Shown piece after piece: positions 1 to 10,095 of a stretch of 10,095 nt of DNA. Origin of the DNA: Nitrospirota bacterium (GTDB taxonomy: Bacteria > UBA2233); assembly GCA_011620345.1 (NCBI GenBank), contig WOZJ01000055.1:1-10095 (forward strand), read 5' to 3'. Position 1 is the stretch's first letter. Each line of letters starts with the position of its first letter. A program made the translations under genes and the position numbers. The notes under the pieces were generated by a model. The model saw only the letters and a list, made by a program, of their open reading frames with translations, searched no databases and was not told where the DNA came from.

Positions 1-3000
1 ACCTGCGTCCTGCCCGTCTCGAGCACCTGGGTTTCCCTAGAGCCGTCCCTGTAGATCGTTACCCCCTTGCAGCCCTGTTCCCAGGCCAAAAGGTAGACCT
101 TTTCGACGGCTTCCGGGGCCGCTTCAAACGGAAAGTTCACCGTTTTGGAGATGGCGTTGTCCACGTGCGCCTGGAAGGCCGCCTGCATCCTTACATGCCG
201 TTCCGGCGGAATGTCGTGGGCGCACACGAACAGCTCCCGTATGTCTTCTGGAACCTCCTCGACGTGCGCAACGCTGCCCTCGAACGCGATCCTCTCCATG
301 AGCGCTTCAGAGTAAAACCCACGCTCTTTGGCGATCCGCGCAAACTCCGGGTGCACTTCGATCAGCTTTTGGCCGTCCAGCACGTTGCGGATGTAGCTGA
401 CGGCGAACAGAGGCTCGATTCCGGAAGAACACCCCGCGATGATGCTGATCGTCCCCGTCGGCGCGACGGTCGTAACCATCGCGTTGCGCTGGGGGATCTT
501 GTAAACGCTCCCTTCGAAGTTGGGAAAAGGCCCTCGATCTTTGGCAAGCTTTCGGGATACCAAGGCGGCCTCCTCGTGGATAAAGCCCATCACCTCGCCG
601 GCGATCTCTAGCGCCCTCTGGGAGTCGTAGGGCACGCCAAGAAGGATCAGCATGTCGGCGAACCCCATCACGCCGAGTCCGATCTTGCGGTTCGCGAGCG
701 TCACCCTGGAAATCTCCTCCAGCGGGTAGCGGTTCATGTCGATCACGTTGTCCAGAAAATGGACAGCGGTCTCCACGGCCCCCTGGAGCCTATCGAAGTC
801 GACCCGGCCGTCCTTGACAAAGTTGGAGAGGTTGATCGAGCCCAAGTTGCAGGACTCGTAGGGCAAAAGGAACTGCTCGCCGCAGGGGTTGCAGCTCTCG
901 ATTTGGCTTACATGGGGCGTTGGGTTCTTGGCGTTCACCCTATCGATAAAAACGATGCCCGGGTCTCCCGTAGCCCAGGCGTTCTCGACGATAAGCTCAA
1001 AGATACGCCTGGCACTCTCCATCCGGACGACGCTGCCGTCCCTGGGGTTGATGAGGGCGTACTCCTCCCCCTTCATCAAGGCTTCCATGAAGACGTCCGT
1101 GATGGCGACCGAGATGTTGAAGTTCTGGAAGCGCTTACCGTCCCTTTTGCAGACAATGAACGCTTCGATGTCGGGATGGTCGACCCGAAGGATCCCCATG
1201 TTCGCACCGCGCCTTGTCCCCCCTTGCTTGATCGTGTCGGTGGCGGCATCGAACACGCCCATGAACGAAACCGGGCCGGAGGATACCCCCTTGGTCGAGT
1301 GGACGAGGTCTCCTTCGGGCCTTAGGCGGGAGAAGGAGAACCCGGTATTGTGGACCATGGCTAGGCCAGACTGTCCGGCAGCGTACGTGTTCCAACCCTC
1401 CACGGAAAGGTCGTAGTAGGGCTTGGGCGTTGTCGCCCGCTCTACACGAGCAATTTCCTGGCCGCGTGCCGCGACACGCTCCATGAGCGCTGCCAGGTCC
1501 GGGTCTTGGAGCCGCACCCGTGAGGCAATGGCGCGCAGGTCATCGCGGCGGCAGCGATGATTGGCGTTGCAGGACCATCGGTTAAGCTCTATGGCGCAGG
1601 GTCCGGGTCCGGTTGACTTATCGCCCCTCCGCCGGACCAACCCCAGCTCCACCATTCGGTCACGCCAGGCCCGTAACGGGAGTCGCAGCGCAGTTTCTCT
1701 TGTGCTCTCCGTGGAGAGCCGGGCGAGCCGGAAGCGGTTGGCCAGGTAGAGTTGCAGGTCGTTAGCGAGTTGCAGGACTTGGGGCAGGGAACAGACCTGC
1801 ACGTTGAACACCGTCTGCCTCCCCCTACCCCGCGGGTTCTTCTTGGATACCGTAGGACGGTAGCCCATCAGGGCGGCAAGCGCGGCCAAGTCCTGGGCAA
1901 ATTCTTCCGAAACCGTGGAGTAGGACGGACTGCCATCCTTGGCGACGTAGCCGTCGCTGTCCAGAAGCCCGGCAAGGAACGCGCGCACGACCGGCAGGGG
2001 CGACTTGGCGATAACCTCGGGGACCCGGATGTGGTCCTCCTTGACGCCGATTGCGCCGAGCCCGCAGGCTTCCAGCAGGTCATGCACGAACCGCTGAGAC
2101 AAGGTAGCCAGCAAGAAGCTTTCTGTACTCCGGTTATCCCGCTGGATGGCGACGTGAATGTCCCTCGAGGCCAGGACCTCTTGCACGCGCTCCAGCACGT
2201 CGCGGGTGCCGGAGAACCAACGCACCCGGTACTGTCTCAGAGAGGGCACGTAGCCAAACGACCCGTCGCCCAAGGTAAAGCCAATGAGCCAGCCCATCCA
2301 GGGATCGATCGTCAGAGTGCCTGCCGTGCGGTACTCAGACCATGGCCAATAGGAATCCGGGCGGTCCGGTCCGAGGATCACGTCCCCTTGCATGAGCTCA
2401 TCAGCGCGGACTTCGGCAAAGCCAGCATCCCGCAGCACCATGAACGGATGCCAGGCGCTAGTCTGGATGACCGTGCCCTCGCGCGTTCGGACTGTCATTT
2501 GATCTGCGGCCGGGACATCAAACTTCCAGACATGGGTAACCTTGCGCAACCCCATGGACCCCGTGGCGGGGTCCATGGCTGCGGTCTGAATGTTGAGGTC
2601 GTTCACGTCATAAGCGATGCCAAAACCGTGACGGATGCCTGGGCGGCCGTCCGCCGTGGTCCGATGGAACAGCACTTCGATAGGCTCCAGCCCGCAAAAT
2701 GTGCTCCAGACCCTAGCATCGCCGGCAATGCAGCCGCCGCCGGATTTGTGGATCAGGGCGGCGTGCTTTACCGTTTCGAAGATACCATTCAGCGAATCTT
2801 CCACGGGGAGGACGAAGCAGGCGCTAAGCTGGCCCAAAGGCCTGCCCGCGTTCATCAGCGTGGGCGAGTTCGGAAGAAAATCGAGCGATGTCAGGAGCTC
2901 GAGAAACCTTGGGTAGGCATTCCCTGGGTCTTTTCCGTAAATCGCCTCGGCTTGGGCGATCGCTCCGGCCACGCGCTCGAAGAGCTCGGATGGTGTCTCG

Positions 3001-3125
3001 ACAACGTTTCCTGATTCGTCTTTTTTCAGATAGCGTTTTTCTAAAACCTTGAGCGCGTTATGGGTAAGCCTAGACATCAGATCGTTTCCGTTTTGCCCGG
3101 GCGACCTTACGTTTTGTATGAGCAC
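1..3125 (-). CDS. nrdJ: Adenosylcobalamin-dependent (class II) ribonucleotide reductase, intein-containing, 3' end outside window
   Basis: Reduces ribonucleotides to deoxyribonucleotides in the cytoplasm, using adenosylcobalamin to make the catalytic thiyl radical. The reading frame is open from 3125 to the left edge. Residues 1-131 are N-extein, with [11 protein letters not shown] at 85-95 and LSACFVLP around Cys103, a position usually redox-active. A 462-aa intein follows, then C-extein starting [10 protein letters not shown]. The C-extein contains the NPCGEQ catalytic motif (876-890), [21 protein letters not shown] and [12 protein letters not shown], all typical of NrdJ. The C-terminal Cys pair would lie outside. 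I chose GTG at 3125 because GGAG sits 6 nt upstream; ATG at 3077 ([17 protein letters not shown]) is possible but has only a weak ribosome site. It lies 58 nt downstream of the HAD gene on the same strand, so the two may be co-transcribed. Family assignment is very secure; the exact start is not. Confidence 0.95.
1347..2732 (-). mobile_element. Intein with LAGLIDADG homing endonuclease, inserted in NrdJ
   Basis: In-frame insertion of 462 codons between KSGGG and TGFSFS, two halves that are contiguous in ordinary NrdJ. Splicing block A begins Cys1-IAGDARVW. Block B is TSAWHPF with His95; a Ser or shifted Thr stands at the usual TxxH Thr. Block F is [15 protein letters not shown] and block G is GLAMVHN, ending with His461-Asn462 followed by a Thr nucleophile at +1. 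The endonuclease has two LAGLIDADG helices about 104 residues apart: LIGFTLGDG at 149-157 (Asp156) and LAGLLDSDG at 253-261 (Asp260). All splicing and endonuclease residues seem intact, so both activities may survive. A late Cys-X8-Cys-X3-His-X-Cys cluster near [12 protein letters not shown] is an unusual extra. Protein splicing should yield an uninterrupted reductase. Confidence 0.95.
2552..2578. repeat. Perfect 12-bp inverted repeat inside the intein gene
   Basis: CCATGGACCCCG and CGGGGTCCATGG are separated by only TGG. It lies between intein blocks A and B and encodes part of [10 protein letters not shown] on the minus strand. There is no T-tract on either side, so it is not a typical terminator. 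Confidence 0.8.
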
Positions 3126-3183
3126 GGGGTACTCCCTTCGTTGTGGTTGCCGTAAAGACGGGAAGCAAAGGCAAGGGGAAAAC

Positions 3184-3957
3184 CTACGGTTGTGTTGCCG
3201 ACAAGATCCAAGCGAGGGCCGCCGCCACACCATGCTCGGTATTGGCGGGCGCGATGAAGTCCGCCATGGCTTTGAGCGGCTCGATTGCGTTCCCCATCGC
3301 AACGCGGACTCCGGCGTAGCCGAAAAGCTCGAGATCGTTTTCTCCATCACCGATGCAGGCGATTTCTTCGGGCAGGATCCCCAACGCCTTGGCCACGGAA
3401 TCGAGGCCGGAGGCCTTGCTTACGCCAGCCGGACAAATCTCTAAGTTGCCATGGAACGAGGAGGTCGTATAAATGGTACCGTCCAAGAGCGCCTTGATTT
3501 CGGCCTTGGCCGATTCTACGCTGGCGATATCGCCGGAGGCGTAGAGCTTGACGACTTCATGGAAGCTGTCGTCTTGGCTTGTTGGCCGGACGACGAAGCG
3601 TAGGTCTGCGGTAATTTCCATGACGAAAGGCACAAGCCCAAACTCTGGAAGGCACTCAAGGCAACTTCGAACGGCCTCCAGAGGAATCGTGCGCTTCATC
3701 AAAGGCCTTTGCCGGCCGACATCCCAAAGGACGGCCCCGTTGCAGGTCACGAGCGGGGCACTCCATGTGATCGGCCTGCTTAAATGAGTTGCGCTATGGG
3801 GGTCACGGCCTGTAGCCAGGGTTACACAAGCCCCCTTGCTCAAGATGCTCGAAATAAGAGGCAAGGCTGCGGTATCGAGGGCTCCTTCCCCATCAAGGAG
3901 TGTCCCGTCTAAGTCGATGGCAATAAGCCGCACCTTGGAGGACAGTTTTGCGGCCAC
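3184..3957 (-). CDS. Cof-type HAD-superfamily phosphatase
   Basis: Soluble Mg-dependent phosphohydrolase of the HAD IIB (Cof) group, which typically acts on sugar phosphates or other small phosphorylated metabolites; the substrate cannot be read from sequence. Motif I is DLDGTLLD with nucleophile Asp15 and general acid Asp17. Motif II is LATGR at 47-51. The motif III Lys is probably Lys181 in VSKASGL. Motif IV is GDGEND at 203-208, with a mobile C2 cap between motifs II and III. The 257-aa length is normal for the group. The GTG start at 3957 is forced: an in-frame TAG lies a few codons upstream and AGGA is about 10 nt away. It sits directly upstream of nrdJ on the same strand. A functional link to nucleotide metabolism is possible but unproven. 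Confidence 0.9.
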
Positions 3958-4206
3958 GGCTTCGATGTCCTACTGTCTTGTGATTGGAGCTTTTAGCTTA
4001 GCATACCTCTTGCCAGCCAAGCCAGGGTTCTTTTTGCGCTGGATCGACCCCTTAAAGTGCCGTAAAAAGGGTAAGGGCTAGAGGCCACCAGGGTCCCCCT
4101 CTTCCGGTAGATTGACGAAACCAAGAAAACCTCGGTCAGCCTACCAAAGCGGAGTAGGGGGCAAGACCTTTTAAGGCTTTTAAGCGGCCTTAACAAAGGC
4201 GGCTTC
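3958..4206. other. Intergenic region between divergent genes, with a long imperfect hairpin
   Basis: This 250-nt gap separates the minus-strand HAD gene from the plus-strand peptide cassette. I find no convincing gene in it. It contains a long interrupted stem spanning 4095-4161. CCCCCT (4095-4100) pairs with AGGGGG (4156-4161), TTCCG (4102-4106) with CGGAG (4150-4154, one wobble), GTAG (4107-4110) with CTAC (4141-4144), and TGAC (4113-4116) with GTCA (4135-4138). It could be a DNA-level operator or the leader of an unmapped transcript. Confidence 0.5.
4168..4193. promoter_or_regulatory. Tandem CTTTTAAG boxes upstream of the peptide promoter, possible operator
   Basis: The palindrome CTTTTAAG occurs at 4168-4175 and again at 4177-4184. 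An overlapping inverted repeat pairs TTAAGGC (4171-4177) with GCCTTAA (4187-4193). The boxes lie 23-39 nt upstream of the -35 element, where an activator or repressor commonly binds. Regulatory function is inferred from position only. Confidence 0.35.
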
Positions 4207-4236
4207 TTGACAACGACTCCTGTAACGTTTTAGGAT
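4207..4236 (+). promoter_or_regulatory. Sigma-70-like promoter of the peptide/exporter cassette
   Basis: A perfect -35 hexamer TTGACA (4207-4212) is followed after 18 nt by TAGGAT (4231-4236) as the -10. GATAAT at 4234-4239 is closer to consensus but 21 nt away. Transcription would begin near 4243, leaving a short leader before the first ribosome site (AAGGAAGAGG, 4251-4260). It is the only strong promoter I can see for the plus-strand genes up to about 8780. Confidence 0.6.
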
Positions 4237-4266
4237 AATTTATACCTTACAAGGAAGAGGATAGTT

Positions 4267-4380
4267 TTGCATGGTAAAAACATTGTATATACCATCCCCG
4301 GTAAGTCCGGTAAGGAAGCGGTCTTTCCCGAGGGCCCCAAGAATGGCAAATGCATCTGCTTCGATGAATCCAATCACTAG
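4267..4380 (+). CDS. Small peptide 1 (37 aa), putative precursor or leaderless peptide with a Cys-X-Cys motif
   Basis: Unrecognised. A TTG start has GAGG 6 nt upstream and lies about 25 nt after the predicted transcription start. The product begins MHGKNIVYTIPGKSGKEAVF and ends NGKCICFDESNH, with Cys at 29 and 31. It has no membrane segment and no classic signal peptide, and is lysine/glycine-rich with a charged end. A competing frame starts at ATG 4271 and ends at 4414 (47 aa, ending EYKKAGGY). I prefer the TTG frame for its ribosome-site spacing and its more protein-like composition, but this is not decisive. It is the first gene behind the promoter and heads a run of three tiny genes, a CPBP protease and an ABC exporter, which suggests a secreted or processed peptide. 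Confidence 0.45.
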   Translation: MHGKNIVYTIPGKSGKEAVFPEGPKNGKCICFDESNH

Positions 4381-4433
4381 AACCCTCGAATACAAAAAAG
4401 CGGGCGGTTACTAACCGATAAACCCCTCAACAT

Positions 4434-4439
4434 AGGAGG
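4434..4439 (+). promoter_or_regulatory. Consensus Shine-Dalgarno site of small peptide 2
   Basis: A complete AGGAGG stands 6 nt before the ATG at 4446. It is the best ribosome site I see in the window and a main reason to accept the following short frame as a gene. Confidence 0.75.
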
Positions 4440-4445
4440 TATCCG

Positions 4446-4604
4446 ATGGAGACGCGTGTACGTAGAAGGACCAAACGAGGAGCAGAGCTGGCAAGCGGGT
4501 TACTTCAGTCCGGCGGCGGGAAGAAGGGTGCCGGGCCGGGACCCGAGCAGCAGGCTGGAGGGGCAGGCCCAAGTTGCTCCCCTGTTACCATTTACCCTCA
4601 CTAA
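4446..4604 (+). CDS. Small peptide 2 (52 aa), Gly/Lys-rich putative secreted or modified peptide
   Basis: Unrecognised. The ATG has a perfect AGGAGG 6 nt upstream. The N-terminus is strongly basic (METRVRRRTKRG), followed by a short ALASGLL-like stretch and a Gly-rich core GGGKKGAG at 23-30. The remainder is Gly/Pro/Gln-rich with a single Cys44 near the end, closing PVTIYPH. The next gene is exactly the same length (52 aa) and shares the GGKKG core, so the two look like diverged paralogues or a two-peptide pair. There is no transmembrane helix. Its place between the promoter and a CPBP protease/ABC exporter suggests a bacteriocin-like or signalling peptide. It could instead be a fortuitous frame in a leader RNA. 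Confidence 0.55.
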   Translation: METRVRRRTKRGAELASGLLQSGGGKKGAGPGPEQQAGGAGPSCSPVTIYPH

Positions 4605-4634
4605 AACAAACTAACCAAGAAGGATTAAGGCTGT

Positions 4635-4793
4635 ATGCTTAATAAAAAAAGTAAAAAAGGTCCGTGCATCGCTACGGGAACTCAGGCAGGTTCCGCTGGA
4701 TTAGGCGGCGGAGCGCCTCAAGAGGGGGGCAAAAAGGGTGGAGCGCCCGCACAAACCCCAGCCGCTCCAGCGCCGGGGGTTTCTTACTACTAG
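4635..4793 (+). CDS. Small peptide 3 (52 aa), Gly/Lys/Pro-rich putative secreted or modified peptide
   Basis: Unrecognised. The ATG follows AAGG (4627-4630, 4 nt spacing) and an earlier AAGGA. It begins MLNKKSKKGPC with Cys11, then a small-residue stretch, the core GGKKGG at 31-36, a Pro/Ala-rich tail APAQTPAAPAP, and a C-terminus GVSYY. Equal length and the shared core link it to peptide 2. It lies 30 nt after peptide 2 and ends 21 nt before the protease start. Its TAG stop is in the same frame as the protease gene, with seven sense codons between them, so read-through would fuse the two. Low-complexity composition means homology tools may miss relatives. Confidence 0.55.
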   Translation: MLNKKSKKGPCIATGTQAGSAGLGGGAPQEGGKKGGAPAQTPAAPAPGVSYY

Positions 4794-4803
4794 GCCCCTT
4801 TTA

Positions 4804-4814
4804 AGCGTTACGCC
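4804..4814 (+). promoter_or_regulatory. 11-nt start-adjacent motif AGCGTTACGCC, copy 1
   Basis: AGCGTTACGCC touches the GTG start of the CPBP gene. The identical 11-mer touches the ATG of the CbiN-like gene at 8498-8508. This copy has no good Shine-Dalgarno site nearby. It contains the odd palindrome GCGT-T-ACGC. Function unknown. Confidence 0.35.
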
Positions 4815-5453
4815 GTGGTGGAGGGTATTGTTGCCGCGCTTTTTGTCCTGATCGCCCTGGACTACGGGACGAACGGCAGGCTTGGCCTGCTGGTTGGCGT
4901 AGCGCAGCTTGCCCTTTTCGCGGTTGGCCTTTGGCAGGGCCAGGCAAGCCTAGGAAGTGGGCTTGCCTGGCCCTTTTTGCTTCTTTATTCCGCCTTAGGA
5001 ATCGCCCTAGGGTACGGGCTTTACGCACTGTCTTCGCTCGCGACCCATGTGACACCAAAGGAAGTGGTCGACTATTTCCGGGAAGGGAAGGGGTTTTTGC
5101 GCTTTTACAGGGAAAGGCCCGGGGTAGCGCTATCTTACCTCTTTATGGCCTATTACGAAGAAGTGCTCTGGAGGGCAATCGTTCAAGGAGCTTTGGCTGA
5201 AATGTTCTCGAACCTGTCTTTGGGCATCCTTATCGCTGCCGCCTTCTTCACGATAATGCACTTCCGTTACTTCATCGAGCTGCCCGTTCGATGGGCAGAG
5301 TTTTTCGTGTTTTCATTGACACTAGGCGTACTCTACGCCTCGACGGGCTCTTTGTTCCTGGTAACGCTCGTTCATTTCCTGCGCAACCTGCATGTCACAT
5401 TTTTTGCCCACTGGGACGAGCAGCAGGTCCAAACCGAGCAGACACAATCATAA
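4815..5453 (+). CDS. CPBP (CAAX protease/bacteriocin-processing) family intramembrane metalloprotease
   Basis: Integral membrane glutamic-type protease of the Rce1/Abi group. All three family motifs are present: EEVLWR at 115-120 (EExxxR), FTIMH at 145-149 (FxxxH) and HFLRN at 187-191 (HxxxN). Several membrane segments (about 4-18, 23-40, 53-75, 105-125, 133-150, 163-195) and a polar tail surround them; the 212-aa length is normal. In peptide operons such proteins process the precursor or protect the producer, and SkfC of the Bacillus skf operon is a comparable case. GTG at 4815 is essentially the only possible start because the in-frame TAG of peptide 3 lies just upstream. The ribosome site is weak, so translation may be coupled. 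The next gene's ATG follows its TAA directly. A terminator-like hairpin lies inside the gene. Confidence 0.88.
   Translation: MVEGIVAALFVLIALDYGTNGRLGLLVGVAQLALFAVGLWQGQASLGSGLAWPFLLLYSALGIALGYGLYALSSLATHVTPKEVVDYFREGKGFLRFYRERPGVALSYLFMAYYEEVLWRAIVQGALAEMFSNLSLGILIAAAFFTIMHFRYFIELPVRWAEFFVFSLTLGVLYASTGSLFLVTLVHFLRNLHVTFFAHWDEQQVQTEQTQS
4936..4978 (+). terminator. Terminator-like hairpin inside the CPBP protease gene, possible attenuator
   Basis: AGGGCCAGGCAAGCC (4936-4950) is perfectly complementary to GGCTTGCCTGGCCCT (4960-4974) across a 9-nt loop. T4974-4978 forms the T-tract, followed by a further T-rich run. A 15-bp GC-rich stem with a T-tract on the plus strand matches an intrinsic terminator. 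It falls about 120 nt into the protease gene, in codons for GQASLGSGLAWPF. Partial termination here would make peptide transcripts outnumber exporter transcripts. In actively translated mRNA the ribosome could suppress it. Confidence 0.6.
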
Positions 5454-6449
5454 ATGGACGCTTCGCTTCCGCTCGCGCTCGAGGCCGTCAGCAAAACCTT
5501 TCGTACAAAAGGCCGGAAAAAGCAGGTTGTCAACGCCCTTCTGAATATCAGCTTAAGGCTTAAAAAGGGCGAGGTCGCAGGCCTTTTGGGCCCAAACGGC
5601 GCCGGCAAGACGACCCTCATCAAGATCCTTTGCGGCCTTGTGTACCCGGACAAAGGCCGAGTCCTCGCCTTCGGCAGTCCCTTCGAGCAAAGCCGCAAAC
5701 AGGCACTCTCCAGGATGGGCGTCCTGCTCGAAGGCCATCGACACATTTTTTGGCCGCTTACGGTCGTAGAGAACCTCAAGTACTTTGGCATGCTCAAGAA
5801 CGTCCCTGGCCCTGCCCTTCGTGAAGACATCGATAGGCTCGTCCAGTTTATGGGTCTAGAAGACAAGCGCGACGTGCCCGTTAGGTTCCTCTCGCAGGGA
5901 ATGCGCCAGAAATTAAGCGTTGCCGTAACGCTCCTTGGCAACCCGGATGTTCTTCTGCTGGACGAGCCGACACAAGGGTTGGACGTCGAATCCCTAAGGG
6001 ACCTCAAGCAGCGCATTGTCCGTCTCGCGAAGGAGTTTCAAAAGGCCATCCTTCTTTCGACCCACCAGATGGAAGTGGCCCAGGAGCTCTGCGACAGAAT
6101 TCTCATCCTCCAAGAGGGGAGAATCCTTGCAGATGCCCCGACGCCTGAACTGATGGGTTATTTTAAGGGGCAGAACTTCATGCTGACAATTAAGGGCCTT
6201 CCATCCTTTTCCCATGAAAGCCAGCCTTTCGCCGCCCTCGGGATGGAACCCAGCCTAGATGAGCACGAAACCGTCGGCACAAACGGCATTGTCCGCATAA
6301 GGGTGGGGGTAAAAAACGGCGAAGGGCTCTTTGACGTGCTCCAAGGGCTAAAAGCCAAAGGCGCCGAGATCGTCAAGGTCGAAGAGCTCAAACGCTCACT
6401 CGAAGAGGTATTCATGGAAATCCTCGGAGGGAAAAAGGGCGATGGGTAG
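5454..6449 (+). CDS. ABC transporter ATP-binding protein (ABC-2 export type)
   Basis: Cytoplasmic ATPase that powers the adjacent permease. Walker A is GPNGAGKTT at 46-54, the signature is LSQGM at 146-150, Walker B is VLLLDEP at 166-172, the D-loop follows at GLD, and the switch His is 204. The Q-loop reads LLEGHRHIFWPLT, with Glu where many ATPases have Gln; this variant is common in the drug/lipid/peptide export (DrrA/CcmA-like) subgroup. Residues after about 235 form the C-terminal extension typical of this group, for a total of 331 aa. The ATG immediately follows the TAA of the protease gene, and the 3' end overlaps the permease gene by 8 nt, showing one translation unit. By context the likely substrate is the upstream peptides; self-resistance export is an alternative. 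Confidence 0.93.
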   Translation: MDASLPLALEAVSKTFRTKGRKKQVVNALLNISLRLKKGEVAGLLGPNGAGKTTLIKILCGLVYPDKGRVLAFGSPFEQSRKQALSRMGVLLEGHRHIFWPLTVVENLKYFGMLKNVPGPALREDIDRLVQFMGLEDKRDVPVRFLSQGMRQKLSVAVTLLGNPDVLLLDEPTQGLDVESLRDLKQRIVRLAKEFQKAILLSTHQMEVAQELCDRILILQEGRILADAPTPELMGYFKGQNFMLTIKGLPSFSHESQPFAALGMEPSLDEHETVGTNGIVRIRVGVKNGEGLFDVLQGLKAKGAEIVKVEELKRSLEEVFMEILGGKKGDG

Positions 6450-7266
6450 GATGGCTGAGCTGAATAACCTGGCTAAGGCCGAGATGTACCGGGAGTACCT
6501 GTTCGCCAAACGTTACTCCGTGGAGGTGTGCGTTAGGCTCTTTACGGTGTACGCCTTCTTTCTTGTGCTGTTCCTCGTATCCAAAAGCTTTGGCGGCGTC
6601 GAACGGCTCGGCGCCTTCGGGATGATGAACCTGAGCGCCTACCAGCTCGTTGGGTTTGCGATGTGGCTTTTCTCACTCATGGCCTTAGGCGTCGTCAGCG
6701 ATGACATCGCCTACGGCAGCCAGATGGGGGTGCTCGAAGCGGTCTGGCTTATGCCGCACGCCCCGCTTACGATGCTCTGCGTCCGGGCGCTTATCAAGGG
6801 TTTTTACGAGCTATTGTTCCTTTCACTGTTCATAGGCTTAGGAATGGCGACCACGGGCATCCGGCTCGCCCCGCGCGTGTTGCCCGCCCTTGTCATTCTT
6901 GCAGTCACGCTGACGGGGCTTTTCGGGCTGGGACTGCTGTTTGGAGGGCTTGCGCTTATGTACAAGCGGATCGGGCCAGTCACCTCGATTGTACGCACCT
7001 CCTTTTTGTTCCTTACCGGCGCGCTCGTTCCGCTGGACGTTCTTCCAAAGGCCCTCAAGACGCTTGCCCTTTTCTTGCCGATGACGGACGGGGTGGCACT
7101 GATCCAACGCCTGCTCGTCAACAATACCCCCTTGCAAGACGTGTTCTTGAGCGTGGGGATGCTAAGGTGCTTAGCGAACGCGCTCATCTACTTTACGGTC
7201 GGGGTCTTTGCGTTTTGGCACTTTGAGCGAAAAGCCAGAAAAGAAGGGCTGCTTGCCGTCTATTGA
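6442..7266 (+). CDS. ABC-2 type permease, partner of the preceding ATPase
   Basis: Inner-membrane permease of 274 aa with about six hydrophobic segments (roughly 30-47, 67-87, 119-138, 147-172, 181-205 and 233-261). The topology and the region around RTSFLFLTGALVPLDVLPKA fit the ABC-2 membrane family, as in DrrB or NodJ-like exporters. The ATG at 6442 lies inside the end of the ATPase gene with GGAGG about 11 nt upstream. A second ATG at 6451 would be crowded against its ribosome site. The overlap implies a stoichiometric complex with the ATPase. The tadA gene follows after 7 nt, so the transcript probably continues. Substrate is inferred from context to be the small peptides. Confidence 0.9.
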   Translation: MGRMAELNNLAKAEMYREYLFAKRYSVEVCVRLFTVYAFFLVLFLVSKSFGGVERLGAFGMMNLSAYQLVGFAMWLFSLMALGVVSDDIAYGSQMGVLEAVWLMPHAPLTMLCVRALIKGFYELLFLSLFIGLGMATTGIRLAPRVLPALVILAVTLTGLFGLGLLFGGLALMYKRIGPVTSIVRTSFLFLTGALVPLDVLPKALKTLALFLPMTDGVALIQRLLVNNTPLQDVFLSVGMLRCLANALIYFTVGVFAFWHFERKARKEGLLAVY

Positions 7267-7273
7267 CGATGCG

Positions 7274-7750
7274 ATGAAGCCTTACGCCTTCCCCCGCCTA
7301 GATGATACGCTCTACATGAACCTTGCCCTTGCTCTGGCCAAAAGAGCCATGCTCGATGAAGAGGTTCCCGTGGGAGCGCTCGTTGTTTTGGGCGGCAAGG
7401 TTTTAGGGTTTGGTTGGAACCAAAAAGAGGCCGGCCTCGACCCGACGGCGCATGCCGAGATCCTGGCGCTTCGAATGGCCGGCAGGACAAAAGGCAACTG
7501 GAGGCTTTCGGGTGGGTGCGTCTACGTTACGAAAGAGCCCTGCGTGATGTGTGCGGGTGCGCTCTTAGAAGCCCGGGTGGCAAGGGTCGTCTACGGCGCC
7601 AAGGATTTCAAAACGGGGGCGTTGGGCTCGCTCTACTGCCTTCACGATCAGGCGTTCTTGCCGCACAGACTGTCCGTTTCAGAAGGGGTAGAGAAGGACA
7701 GGGCCGCGGAACTCCTCGTTCGTTTTTTCCGATGCAAAAAGAACCGCTGA
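7274..7750 (+). CDS. tadA: tRNA-specific adenosine deaminase
   Basis: Converts A34 to inosine in the anticodon of tRNA-Arg(ACG), allowing it to read CGN codons; essential in many bacteria. The zinc site is complete: HAE at 60-62 (ligand His60, catalytic Glu62) and PCVMC at 89-93 (Cys90, Cys93). VPVGALVV, ARVARVVYGAKD and GALGSLYCL are typical family stretches. The ATG at 7274 gives 158 aa, a normal length; an in-frame ATG at 7208 would place 22 extra residues inside the permease gene and is unlikely. The gene begins 7 nt after the permease and overlaps the next gene by 19 nt. It is probably a housekeeping gene caught in the run rather than part of the peptide system. Confidence 0.93.
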   Translation: MKPYAFPRLDDTLYMNLALALAKRAMLDEEVPVGALVVLGGKVLGFGWNQKEAGLDPTAHAEILALRMAGRTKGNWRLSGGCVYVTKEPCVMCAGALLEARVARVVYGAKDFKTGALGSLYCLHDQAFLPHRLSVSEGVEKDRAAELLVRFFRCKKNR

Positions 7751-8499
7751 AGAGGTTTTTATGGCTTCTAGCCGCATCAAGCGCAGCCCTTGCGTGCCTT
7801 GAAGGAAAGGCGTTTGCCGTGCACCTAGCGGACGGGGTTCTGCCTTTCGGCCAAGCTCTCGCGTGGAACGGCGTAGGCATTGCTGCAGTGGCCTTCAGCT
7901 TGAAGCGGGTTTCTGCCGCGCACGGCCAAGAACCCTTTATCAAGGCGATCGCCGCCTTGATGGGCTCGGTGTTGTTCGTCCTTTCTGGGCTGCCTATCCC
8001 CGTGCCCTTTCTTGGGACCACTTCCCACCCTACGGGGATGGGAATCGTGAGCCTGCTTGTCGGCCCTTACATCGCGATTCTCGTGACGCTGGTTGCGCTC
8101 GTTTTGCAAGCACTGCTTTTAGGCCATGGCGGGATCTCGACGCTCGGGGCGAACCTCGTGAGCATGGGGGTTGTGGGGAGTCTGGCCGCGCTTTCGAGCT
8201 TTCGGCTCGTTCGGGGGCTCGGCGGTTCAAAAATGGCAGGGGCGTTCGTGGCCGGGCTTTTGGGCGATTACCTCCCTTACTTTGCAACGGCGACCATTCT
8301 CGCGTTCGGGGTACACGGCACGGCCGCGTTCGGTTCCGTTTTCCTGGCAATCCTTGCAGCCTATGCCCCAACCCAGGTGCCGATCGGGATTCTCGACGGT
8401 GTACTTGCGCTCGGGGCTTACAGGTTCCTTACCGCCAGGCGCCCGGACGTCTTCGAACACCTTAAGGACCGAGGGCTGCTCCCTCGCTACGTAAGGTAG
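7732..8499 (+). CDS. cbiM: CbiM-like cobalt transport permease (ECF-type), with signal peptide
   Basis: Substrate-binding membrane subunit of a cobalt (or nickel) energy-coupling-factor transporter. Residues 1-29 form a cleavable signal ending KAFA, so the mature protein would start VHLADGVLPFG. In the family the new N-terminus is Met-His and binds the metal; the second-position His is kept here but Met is Val. GTTSHPTGMGI around His99 and LLLGHGGISTLGANLVSMG at about 128-146 are conserved CbiM motifs. It is 255 aa with about seven hydrophobic segments. The ATG at 7732 overlaps the end of tadA by 19 nt with no clear ribosome site, which suggests translational coupling. No CbiQ or CbiO gene is in the window, so the energising subunits must be elsewhere or absent. 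Cobalt supply would serve cobalamin for the class II reductase. Confidence 0.88.
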   Translation: MQKEPLKRFLWLLAASSAALACLEGKAFAVHLADGVLPFGQALAWNGVGIAAVAFSLKRVSAAHGQEPFIKAIAALMGSVLFVLSGLPIPVPFLGTTSHPTGMGIVSLLVGPYIAILVTLVALVLQALLLGHGGISTLGANLVSMGVVGSLAALSSFRLVRGLGGSKMAGAFVAGLLGDYLPYFATATILAFGVHGTAAFGSVFLAILAAYAPTQVPIGILDGVLALGAYRFLTARRPDVFEHLKDRGLLPRYVR

Positions 8500-8508
8500 C
8501 GTTACGCC
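8498..8508 (+). promoter_or_regulatory. 11-nt start-adjacent motif AGCGTTACGCC, copy 2
   Basis: Identical to 4804-4814 and likewise directly against a start codon (ATG 8509). It overlaps the stop codon of cbiM. TAAGG lies about 12 nt before the ATG, so the ribosome site is poorly spaced here as well. Confidence 0.35.
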
Positions 8509-8781
8509 ATGAAAGAGATCCGGAGGTTTTTATCGACGCTTCTTTTCGAGGCCTTGTTCGTTTTAGGCCTTCTTTGCTGCAGCTCGGCTCAGGCCATCGA
8601 AGGGGTCGAAGAGGGCAAAATCGAGCCGATCGTAAGAGCCTTGGGGGTAGAGCCTAAAGGCCCCGTTCTTGACTTGAAGGGCGACGCCCTGCTTTTCGTA
8701 GCGTTCGGCGCGGGCGCGCTCGCCGGAGGAGTGGCGGGGTACTGCCTTCGCGCGTTGATCCAAAAAGACCAGCCCCGATGA
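8509..8781 (+). CDS. Small CbiN-like membrane protein (putative cobalt transporter accessory subunit)
   Basis: A 90-aa protein with an N-terminal hydrophobic or signal segment (about 8-29, ending SSAQA), a short extracytoplasmic stretch rich in Glu/Pro/Gly, and one membrane helix near 62-83 (LLFVAFGAGALAGGVAGYCL) before a basic cytoplasmic tail. CbiN has the same size, the same two-helix layout and the same position right after cbiM, and it aids metal loading of CbiM. Sequence similarity to CbiN is not obvious to me, so the call rests on topology and synteny. It begins 9 nt after the cbiM stop. A PDGLE-type accessory domain is an alternative. Confidence 0.6.
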   Translation: MKEIRRFLSTLLFEALFVLGLLCCSSAQAIEGVEEGKIEPIVRALGVEPKGPVLDLKGDALLFVAFGAGALAGGVAGYCLRALIQKDQPR

Positions 8782-8948: not shown

Positions 8949-9452
8949 ATGCGAAAGCTCTTTATGGTTACGTTCTTTTTGTTGTTTGGGATCGCGCTGC
9001 CGCTTCAGGCCGAAACCCTTCTTGAGGAGTTCCAGTCGGATCCGAACGTGGTCCAGGCCTTGAATCAGCTCAATACCGCGCTTTCCAACCCCTCATTGCA
9101 AGGACCCCTTTCGACGCGAAACGAGCTCTCCTCGAACCCCAAAGCGCTCGAGGCAATCCAAGGTCTTCAGAATGTCCTTCAGAATGTCCAGAGTCTCGAC
9201 CAGCTCGATGCCGCGCTTCAAAACCCCTTTGTTCAACAGTACGCACAGGCCACGGAAGCAATACTCAGTGATCCCGGCGTTATCAAAGCCGTTCAGAAAT
9301 TCCAGGCCGCGGTCCAGGCCAACCCGCAACTCGCCTCGGTTCTGCAGGACCCAAACGCCATGCAGCAGCTCCTGAACGAGCTCGCCACTCAGGCCAAACG
9401 TTCCCAGCAAACGGCAAACACCTTAAAGCTCCTCTTGCAGCCGGCCTTTTAG
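8949..9452 (+). CDS. Secreted or periplasmic [D/N]P-repeat helical protein, function unknown
   Basis: A 167-aa protein with a clear signal peptide: MRK, a hydrophobic core to about residue 17, and a cleavage site after LQA at 21. The mature part is Gln/Asn/Leu/Ala-rich and carries seven Asp-Pro or Asn-Pro dipeptides at 31, 47, 63, 92, 108, 125 and 134, mostly 16-17 residues apart. Each is followed by an amphipathic helix-like pattern (DPNVVQALNQL, DPGVIKAVQKF, NPQLASVLQDPNAMQQLLNEL). The last resembles the DP-type repeats of STI1-like chaperone-binding domains, though this is by eye. No Cys and no further membrane segment. The start has AAGGAG 8 nt upstream. TAGAAT at 8895-8900 could be a -10 element, but no convincing -35 pairs with it. 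The gene probably has its own transcript, since 167 nt separate it from the CbiN-like gene. Confidence 0.85.
   Translation: MRKLFMVTFFLLFGIALPLQAETLLEEFQSDPNVVQALNQLNTALSNPSLQGPLSTRNELSSNPKALEAIQGLQNVLQNVQSLDQLDAALQNPFVQQYAQATEAILSDPGVIKAVQKFQAAVQANPQLASVLQDPNAMQQLLNELATQAKRSQQTANTLKLLLQPAF
9165..9188 (+). repeat. Perfect tandem repeat of 12 nt in the secreted-protein gene
   Basis: CTTCAGAATGTC occurs twice back to back, encoding LQNVLQNV at residues 73-80. It sits where the spacing between [D/N]P units is longest (29 instead of 16), suggesting a recent slippage duplication. Confidence 0.85.
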
Positions 9453-9655
9453 CGCCTTAGCAAGTTGCTGGCCCCCAGGAAGCCCAAGGTCAGCGCGCAC
9501 GTTTGGCTCTGAGGACATTGTGGCGGTCTCACCCACGACAGCCACGACCACGTCCGCGTGCCTTGCAGCCGACACGGCCTCGTCAAGGAGCGCCTCGGGG
9601 CTGGCTTCTTTTGTTTGTCCCGCTCGACCCCTTGGATCACCGTAACCACGTTCTC
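9447..9655 (-). pseudogene. Fragment of a BglX-like GH3 beta-glucosidase
   Basis: On the minus strand a frame reads SPEALLDEAVSAARHADVVV, then AVVGETATMSSEPNVRADLG and LPGGQQLAKALKG. This matches the C-terminal GH3 domain of periplasmic beta-glucosidases such as BglX (pattern DEAV..A...DVVVAVVGE....E...R.D..LP..Q..L..ALK). Upstream in another frame, ENVVTVIQGVERD resembles the VTVLxGIK segment that normally precedes it by about 40 residues, so an internal deletion with a frameshift has occurred. The catalytic N-terminal domain and the rest of the C-terminus are missing. Homology ends at the stop codon of the secreted-protein gene on one side and at transposase sequence on the other. It is not functional. 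Confidence 0.75.
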
Positions 9656-9876
9656 TTTGGTGGATACAGAAGAGCATTGGCCTGGCTACGCTATAAAGAA
9701 CGCGTCTTGGTGAACAAGAAAAGGGTCCTTAGGCTCATGCAAGTGAGTGGCCTTACGCTGAAGCCAAATGAACGGCTCAGAGCCTACCTCTACGGCGTTC
9801 GTGAAAGCCTGCGGCCTGCTCGGGATCAATCAGGCCTTCACGAGCTACTCGAACCCCAAGGGGAATGCCGATACCG

Positions 9877-9897
9877 ACACGAAGTCGGCGAAGCAAA
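9877..9897 (+). repeat. 21-nt inverted repeat, left copy: 18-bp insertion in the catalytic-Glu codon
   Basis: Contains ACACGAAGTCGGCGAAGC (9877-9894) followed by AAA. Removing these 18 nt turns the codons GAT ACC G...AA AGG into GAT ACC GAA AGG, i.e. NADTERVMRTLKEE as expected in IS3 transposases. As it stands the protein would read NADTDTKSAKQRVMRT. The reverse complement of all 21 nt occurs at 10044-10064. Confidence 0.85.
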
Positions 9898-10043
9898 GGG
9901 TCATGAGGACGCTCAAAGAAGAGCTGGTCCATATAAGGGAATGGAAGAGCCAAGAGGAGCTTATTAAGGCCTTAGGGGGCTGGATCAGGTTCTACAACGA
10001 GGAGTACCTCCACTCGTCTCTTGGGTATAAATCGCCAACAACG

Positions 10044-10064
10044 TTTGCTTCGCCGACTTCGTGT
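10044..10064 (-). repeat. 21-nt inverted repeat, right copy: 18-bp insertion near the transposase C-terminus
   Basis: Exact reverse complement of 9877-9897 (TTT plus an 18-nt core at 10047-10064). Removing the core joins TTT to GAA and changes TTFASPTSCENEW to the more family-like TTFENEW. The core is a multiple of three long and keeps the frame open. Confidence 0.85.
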
Positions 10065-10095
10065 GAAAATGAATGGGAGGGGGAAGAGATGTGTC

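What the first reader, a model, noticed from the sequence alone, without database searches (positions are those of the whole stretch)
4207..7266. Candidate new peptide system: three tiny genes, a CPBP protease and an ABC exporter behind one promoter
Seen: a consensus-like promoter, three short frames with ribosome sites (37, 52 and 52 aa), two of equal length sharing GGKKG, then CPBP, ABC ATPase and permease with 21, 0 and -8 nt spacing. Known: CPBP proteins and ABC-2 exporters accompany peptide precursors in bacteriocin and killing-factor operons (for example skfA-skfC-skfEF, where a radical SAM enzyme is also present). Inferred: an exported, possibly unmodified or trans-modified, multi-peptide toxin or signal with CPBP processing or immunity. 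I recognise none of the peptides.
Basis: partly seen in the sequence, partly recalled or inferred. Interest (0 to 1): 0.8.

Follow-up and report, generated by a model that had tools for sequence, protein, structure and literature searches.

The report
Three small peptides with CPBP–ABC exporter
A bacterium from a candidate phylum known from two genomes carries an operon of three tiny, probably real peptide genes followed by a membrane protease and an ABC exporter, and the nearest relatives of that exporter, in a second uncultured phylum, also sit behind one to three tiny peptide genes, so this is probably a peptide-export system whose product is unknown.

Summary
The operon is real, with one correction: the first small gene is most likely ATG 4271–4414 (47 aa), not the 37-aa TTG frame. 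The window is a whole contig of candidate phylum UBA2233/Ca. Cutipiota (two genomes). Both carry promoter, peptides A/B/C, CPBP, ATPase, permease and a TadA-like gene as one collinear block (~93% identical) with different 5' flanks. Substitutions in A+B+C are depleted for nonsynonymous changes (20 vs 27.4 expected, P=0.004), indels in A keep frame, and no RNA structure or Rfam family explains the region.

Of 386 diverse genomes searched, only one other phylum holds strong relatives of this CPBP. There, CPBP, ATPase and permease lie in the same order in an operon with GNATs, a degenerate radical-SAM/SPASM protein and one to three ~40-aa MKH… peptides. That independently supports the peptide-precursor reading. 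The peptides themselves are unrelated, and no SPASM maturase was found in either UBA2233 genome.

Best reading: an skf-like peptide maturation/export operon without a recognisable modifying enzyme. Toxin, signal or envelope role is undetermined. New variant of a known kind. 'GGKKG' is not diagnostic; the ATPase C-terminus carries it too.

The parts
4207..4236 (+). promoter-like site TTGACA-18-TAGGAT
   Evidence: 10/12 consensus; near-identical in L007 and close to the 5' end of the conserved block
   Evidence: ATG and stop conserved, in-frame indels, pN/pS 0.37 against 1.46 and 0.89 in the other frames
4434..4439 (+). AGGAGG ribosome-binding site of B
   Evidence: sequence; conserved in L007
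4446..4604 (+). small gene B, 52 aa (METRVRRRTKRG...SPVTIYPH)
   Evidence: intact at same length in L007, pN/pS 0.41
4635..4793 (+). small gene C, 52 aa (MLNKKSKKGPC...PAPGVSYY)
   Evidence: intact at same length in L007, pN/pS 0.26
4815..5453 (+). CPBP-family membrane protease-like protein, 212 aa
   Evidence: PF02517 E=7e-14; EExxxR, FxxxH and third-motif His present; pN/pS 0.18
5454..6449 (+). DrrA-like ABC ATPase, 331 aa
   Evidence: TIGR01188 E=3.3e-61, below the curated cut-off; PF00005
6442..7266 (+). ABC-2 permease, 274 aa
   Evidence: PF01061 E=1.2e-7; homologous to the permease of the second phylum's cassette
7274..7750 (+). TadA-like deaminase frame, downstream end of the conserved block, 158 aa
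   Evidence: HAEIL and PCVMC motifs read from the sequence, not scanned; inside the collinear block

Best explanation
One promoter drives an operon that encodes three small basic peptides and a dedicated membrane complex of CPBP protease, ABC ATPase and ABC-2 permease. The peptides are made in the cytoplasm and exported by the ABC pair; the CPBP protein trims the peptides or gives self-protection at the membrane. It works like an skf-type peptide operon with no recognisable modifying enzyme. Shown: a conserved block, coding constraint on the peptides, intact CPBP motifs, homology to and same gene order as cassettes linked to short peptides in another phylum. Inferred: that A, B and C are the substrates, the direction of transport, the processing, and any killing or signalling role.
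For: Whole block conserved from the promoter on with different 5' neighbours. Combined nonsynonymous deficit in A+B+C, P=0.004, with in-frame indels in A. CPBP, ATPase and permease intact and under strong constraint. The nearest CPBP relatives found among 386 genomes lie in one other phylum, in the order GNATs-CPBP-ATPase-permease-SPASM, behind one to three MKH... peptides. Described precedents: skf cluster (PMC8172795) and CPBP proteins MroQ and SkkI in peptide processing and immunity (PMC10482373).
Against: Only two closely related genomes carry A, B and C, so the codon test is modest. The window peptides are unrelated in sequence to the MKH peptides, have no hydrophobic segment that an intramembrane protease would obviously cut, and no expression data exist. 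GNATs and the SPASM protein are missing from the window, so the analogy is partial.
Confidence: 0.5

Rival explanations
1. The small frames are regulatory leader peptides: their translation tunes expression of a CPBP-ABC pair that serves envelope upkeep or peptide/drug resistance, and the peptides are not exported.
For: All three frames lie between the promoter and the transporter genes; the C-CPBP spacer (21 nt) is identical in both genomes.
Against: No attenuator-like structure: folding is no better than in shuffles and Rfam gives nothing. Three frames of about 50 aa are long for leaders, and their amino-acid sequence appears constrained.
Confidence: 0.15
2. The cassette exports peptides for a core, non-killing function (signal, envelope or cofactor-like role) rather than a toxin.
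For: Single copy in both genomes and followed by a TadA-like gene. In the other phylum the CPBP is present in 36 of 38 good genomes, nearly always as a single match, unlike patchy bacteriocin loci.
Against: Nothing ties it to a specific process, and the peptide sequences differ completely between the two phyla, which also fits diversifying toxins.
Confidence: 0.3
3. The small frames are not genes: chance open frames kept by the closeness of the two genomes, in front of an ordinary CPBP-ABC operon.
For: Only 39 substitutions in all; B and C alone are not significant (P=0.07 and 0.17). No database relative of any of the three.
Against: Combined P=0.004; 58% of random placements would break at least one frame; indels in A keep frame; a consensus ribosome site precedes B.
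Confidence: 0.15

Closest known systems
MKH-peptide / GNAT / CPBP / ABC / SPASM operon of a second, unnamed phylum (found here)
   Same: CPBP, DrrA-like ATPase and ABC-2 permease homologous and in the same order, behind one to three short peptide genes
   Different: It has GNATs and a SPASM-like protein; its peptides are unrelated in sequence to A, B and C
skf operon (sporulation killing factor, Bacillus subtilis)
   Same: Small precursor gene, putative protease (SkfC) and ABC pair SkfE/SkfF for export or resistance (PMC8172795)
   Different: skf has a radical SAM enzyme and a cysteine-containing sactipeptide; no SPASM protein was found in the window's genome. Sequence homology to Skf proteins was not tested
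NF041647 ABC permease/CPBP fusion
   Same: CPBP domain working with an ABC permease (E=3.9e-8 to the CPBP part)
   Different: Separate genes here; 32.5 bits is far below the family cut-off of 435
MroQ-AgrD (Staphylococcus aureus)
   Same: A CPBP protein needed for maturation of a short peptide (PMC10482373)
   Different: No AgrB/AgrC/AgrA-like gene seen in the window; AgrD is processed without this kind of ABC pair. Genome-wide search for agr genes not done

Membership tests
CPBP (PF02517) intramembrane proteases | Pfam match and EExxxR / FxxxH / third-His motifs | tested here: met
   E=7e-14 against a cut-off of 22.4 bits (52.3 bits); motifs EEVLWR, FTIMH and H187 conserved
ABC-2 exporters | ABC_tran ATPase next to an ABC2_membrane permease | tested here: met
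   PF00005 108.4 bits and PF01061 31.9 bits, both above cut-off
skf-type sactipeptide operon | radical SAM/SPASM maturase | tested here: not met
   No TIGR04085 SPASM match in G000 or G001; the control genomes gave matches
skf-type sactipeptide operon | small precursor + CPBP-like protease + ABC ATPase and permease in one operon | tested here: met
   function of A, B and C as precursors is inferred
skf-type sactipeptide operon | sequence homology of the proteins to SkfA, SkfC, SkfE, SkfF | not tested
   No Skf sequences were compared
double-glycine bacteriocins | double-glycine leader and C39-peptidase exporter | tested here: inconclusive
   The Pfam scan listed no C39 peptidase for the ATPase or permease; the leaders were judged by eye only
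MKH-peptide operon of the second phylum | MKH... peptides | tested here: not met
   Profiles A5 and A6 give E of 2 or worse on window and L036 frames; no A5 match in G000 or G001

The most novel reading that the evidence does not exclude
A CPBP-ABC cassette shared by two uncultured phyla is a general export/maturation module for unrelated short peptides; in Ca. Cutipiota it handles three basic peptides without a recognisable modifying enzyme, forming an undescribed secreted-peptide system.
Probability: 0.4. Interest if true: 0.7.

Novelty: new variant of a known kind. Interest (0 to 1): 0.55.

Why it matters
If true, it adds a peptide-export system in a phylum with two known genomes and links it to a nearly universal, apparently undescribed peptide operon in a second phylum, showing one exporter cassette reused with unrelated peptides. 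It would also give concrete genes with which to test what CPBP proteins do next to ABC exporters.

Tried and rejected
The 37-aa TTG frame (start not conserved, poorer pN/pS). GGKKG as a peptide signature (also in the ATPase C-terminus). Structured RNA or a known RNA family. Relatives of peptide C in viral contigs and plasmids, of the small-ORF DNA in plasmids and of the CPBP in plasmids: none. Phage families for the peptides: none; defence families: none for CPBP and permease, only ATPase-domain matches for the ABC ATPase. Solved-structure relatives of the CPBP profile: none meaningful. Kinship of A/B/C with the MKH peptides was tested and not found. Literature searches gave no description of this operon, but the library lacks most subscription papers.

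Full report
Setting. The window is the whole of contig C24 of a 1.80-Mb genome. Genus, family, order and phylum searches each return the same two genomes, and the relative is MAG UBA2233 (NCBI lists it under Nitrospirota). A review lists phylum UBA2233, 'Candidatus Cutipiota', with two genomes of 1.8-1.89 Mb and about 56% GC from oil-contaminated soil and a tailings pond (PMC11382960). That identification of the window's phylum is an inference from these matches.

Observation. Gene order, spacings, promoter match and the two 52-aa frames are as described. The promoter match alone is at chance level for the window. The sister locus L007 is collinear from about 4158 to 7751 at 93% identity. Upstream the genes differ: a HAD-like frame in the window and an HsdR-like 1025-aa frame in L007 (both named from their sequence, not scanned). 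So the conserved unit starts just before the promoter and runs through A, B, C, CPBP, ATPase, permease and a TadA-like frame.

Are the small frames genes? Substitutions between the two genomes were counted in each frame. A (ATG 4271): pN/pS 0.37, against 1.46 and 0.89 in the other frames, with a 9-nt and a 3-nt indel both in frame. B: 0.41; C: 0.26. CPBP and ATPase, as yardsticks, have 0.18 and 0.19. Singly B and C are not significant (P=0.07 and 0.17), but A, B and C together have 20 nonsynonymous changes against 27.4 expected, P=0.004; 58% of random placements would also have created a stop in at least one frame. The frame of A was chosen after looking at three, so the combined value should be read as roughly 0.01. 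RNA folding is no better than in shuffles, and Rfam gives nothing even at E up to 5. B and C match no Pfam or NCBIfam family and A, B and C match no PHROGs family; the 47-aa form of A was not scanned against Pfam or NCBIfam. They are basic (pI 9.8-11.1) and hydrophilic, with no obvious signal or hydrophobic segment by eye.

The cassette. CPBP has intact EExxxR, FxxxH and third-His motifs. The ATPase is DrrA-like and the permease ABC-2. Searching 386 genomes spread over the bacteria with the CPBP gave, apart from the two UBA2233 genomes, two hits near 1e-14 and the rest at 1e-6 or worse. A 12-sequence profile repeated this; it contains members of both groups, so their high scores there are partly by construction.

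The second phylum. There 58 of 68 genomes (36 of 38 good ones) have the CPBP (the profile contains two of its members, so the count concerns that phylum's own family). In 20 loci examined the usual order is short peptides, GNATs, CPBP, ATPase, permease, SPASM-like protein; some loci are cut by contig ends. The window permease is homologous to theirs (hhalign probability 99.1%). Upstream lie one to three peptides of 39-60 aa, nearly all beginning MKH (one MNKH). One class, with consensus MKHIRxITxxRADAFxDFxNAxWRAWxDFxYxKKNE, is found in 53 of 68 genomes (34 of 38 good ones), mostly within about 3 kb of the CPBP. The other class has a hydrophobic tail. The SPASM-like protein keeps its SPASM cysteines and, in 10 of 11, an N-terminal CxCxxC, but lacks CX3CX2C in all 11 examined.

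Interpretation. The recurrence of 'tiny genes, then CPBP-ATPase-permease' in a second phylum is independent support for reading A, B and C as substrates of the cassette. It is not proof: the peptides are unrelated in sequence, GNATs and the SPASM protein are absent from the window, and no SPASM domain was found in either genome. The closest described organisation is skf, with precursor, radical SAM enzyme, putative protease SkfC and exporter SkfE/F (PMC8172795). CPBP proteins are documented in peptide processing (MroQ) and in bacteriocin immunity (SkkI) (PMC10482373). The window therefore works like an skf-type operon but fails the radical-SAM criterion for membership. Near-universality in the second phylum speaks for a core role there and makes a plain bacteriocin less likely.

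Limits. Two close genomes, no expression data, no metagenome scan, and no name for the second phylum.

Noticed in passing
L067-L086 (e.g. L086:5036-11719, L073:5438-11818, L076:5368-11860): An apparently undescribed operon in a second phylum: one to three MKH... peptides, GNATs, CPBP, ABC ATPase, permease and a SPASM-like protein; CPBP in 36 of 38 good genomes and the KKNE-type peptide in 34 of 38.
   Followed up: partly
L067:4407-6533, L082:9708-11540 and nine more loci: SPASM-like proteins of that operon lack the radical-SAM CX3CX2C motif in all 11 examined but keep SPASM cysteines and mostly an N-terminal CxCxxC; L067's copy also matches an acetyltransferase model at its C-terminus.
   Followed up: partly
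G277:C3:256812-256859 and G277:C29:47094-47141: Weak matches (E 0.02-0.04) to the N-terminal 16 positions of the MKH peptide profile away from the operon, possibly further MKH peptides.
   Followed up: no
window 3-3350 (- strand): Long frame that reads like a ribonucleotide reductase large subunit interrupted by an intein-like insertion (by eye).
   Followed up: no
window 7741-8499: CbiM-type cobalt uptake gene (PF01891), absent from the corresponding place in L007.
   Followed up: no
window 8949-9452: 167-aa protein with a signal-like N-terminus and only weak family matches (one Pfam model just above its cut-off); conserved in L007 at 8114-8605.
   Followed up: no
window 9465-10095: Integrase-core fragment at the contig end (PF13683), beside what looks like the remnant of a glycoside-hydrolase-like gene that is longer in L007 (8602-10446).
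   Followed up: no
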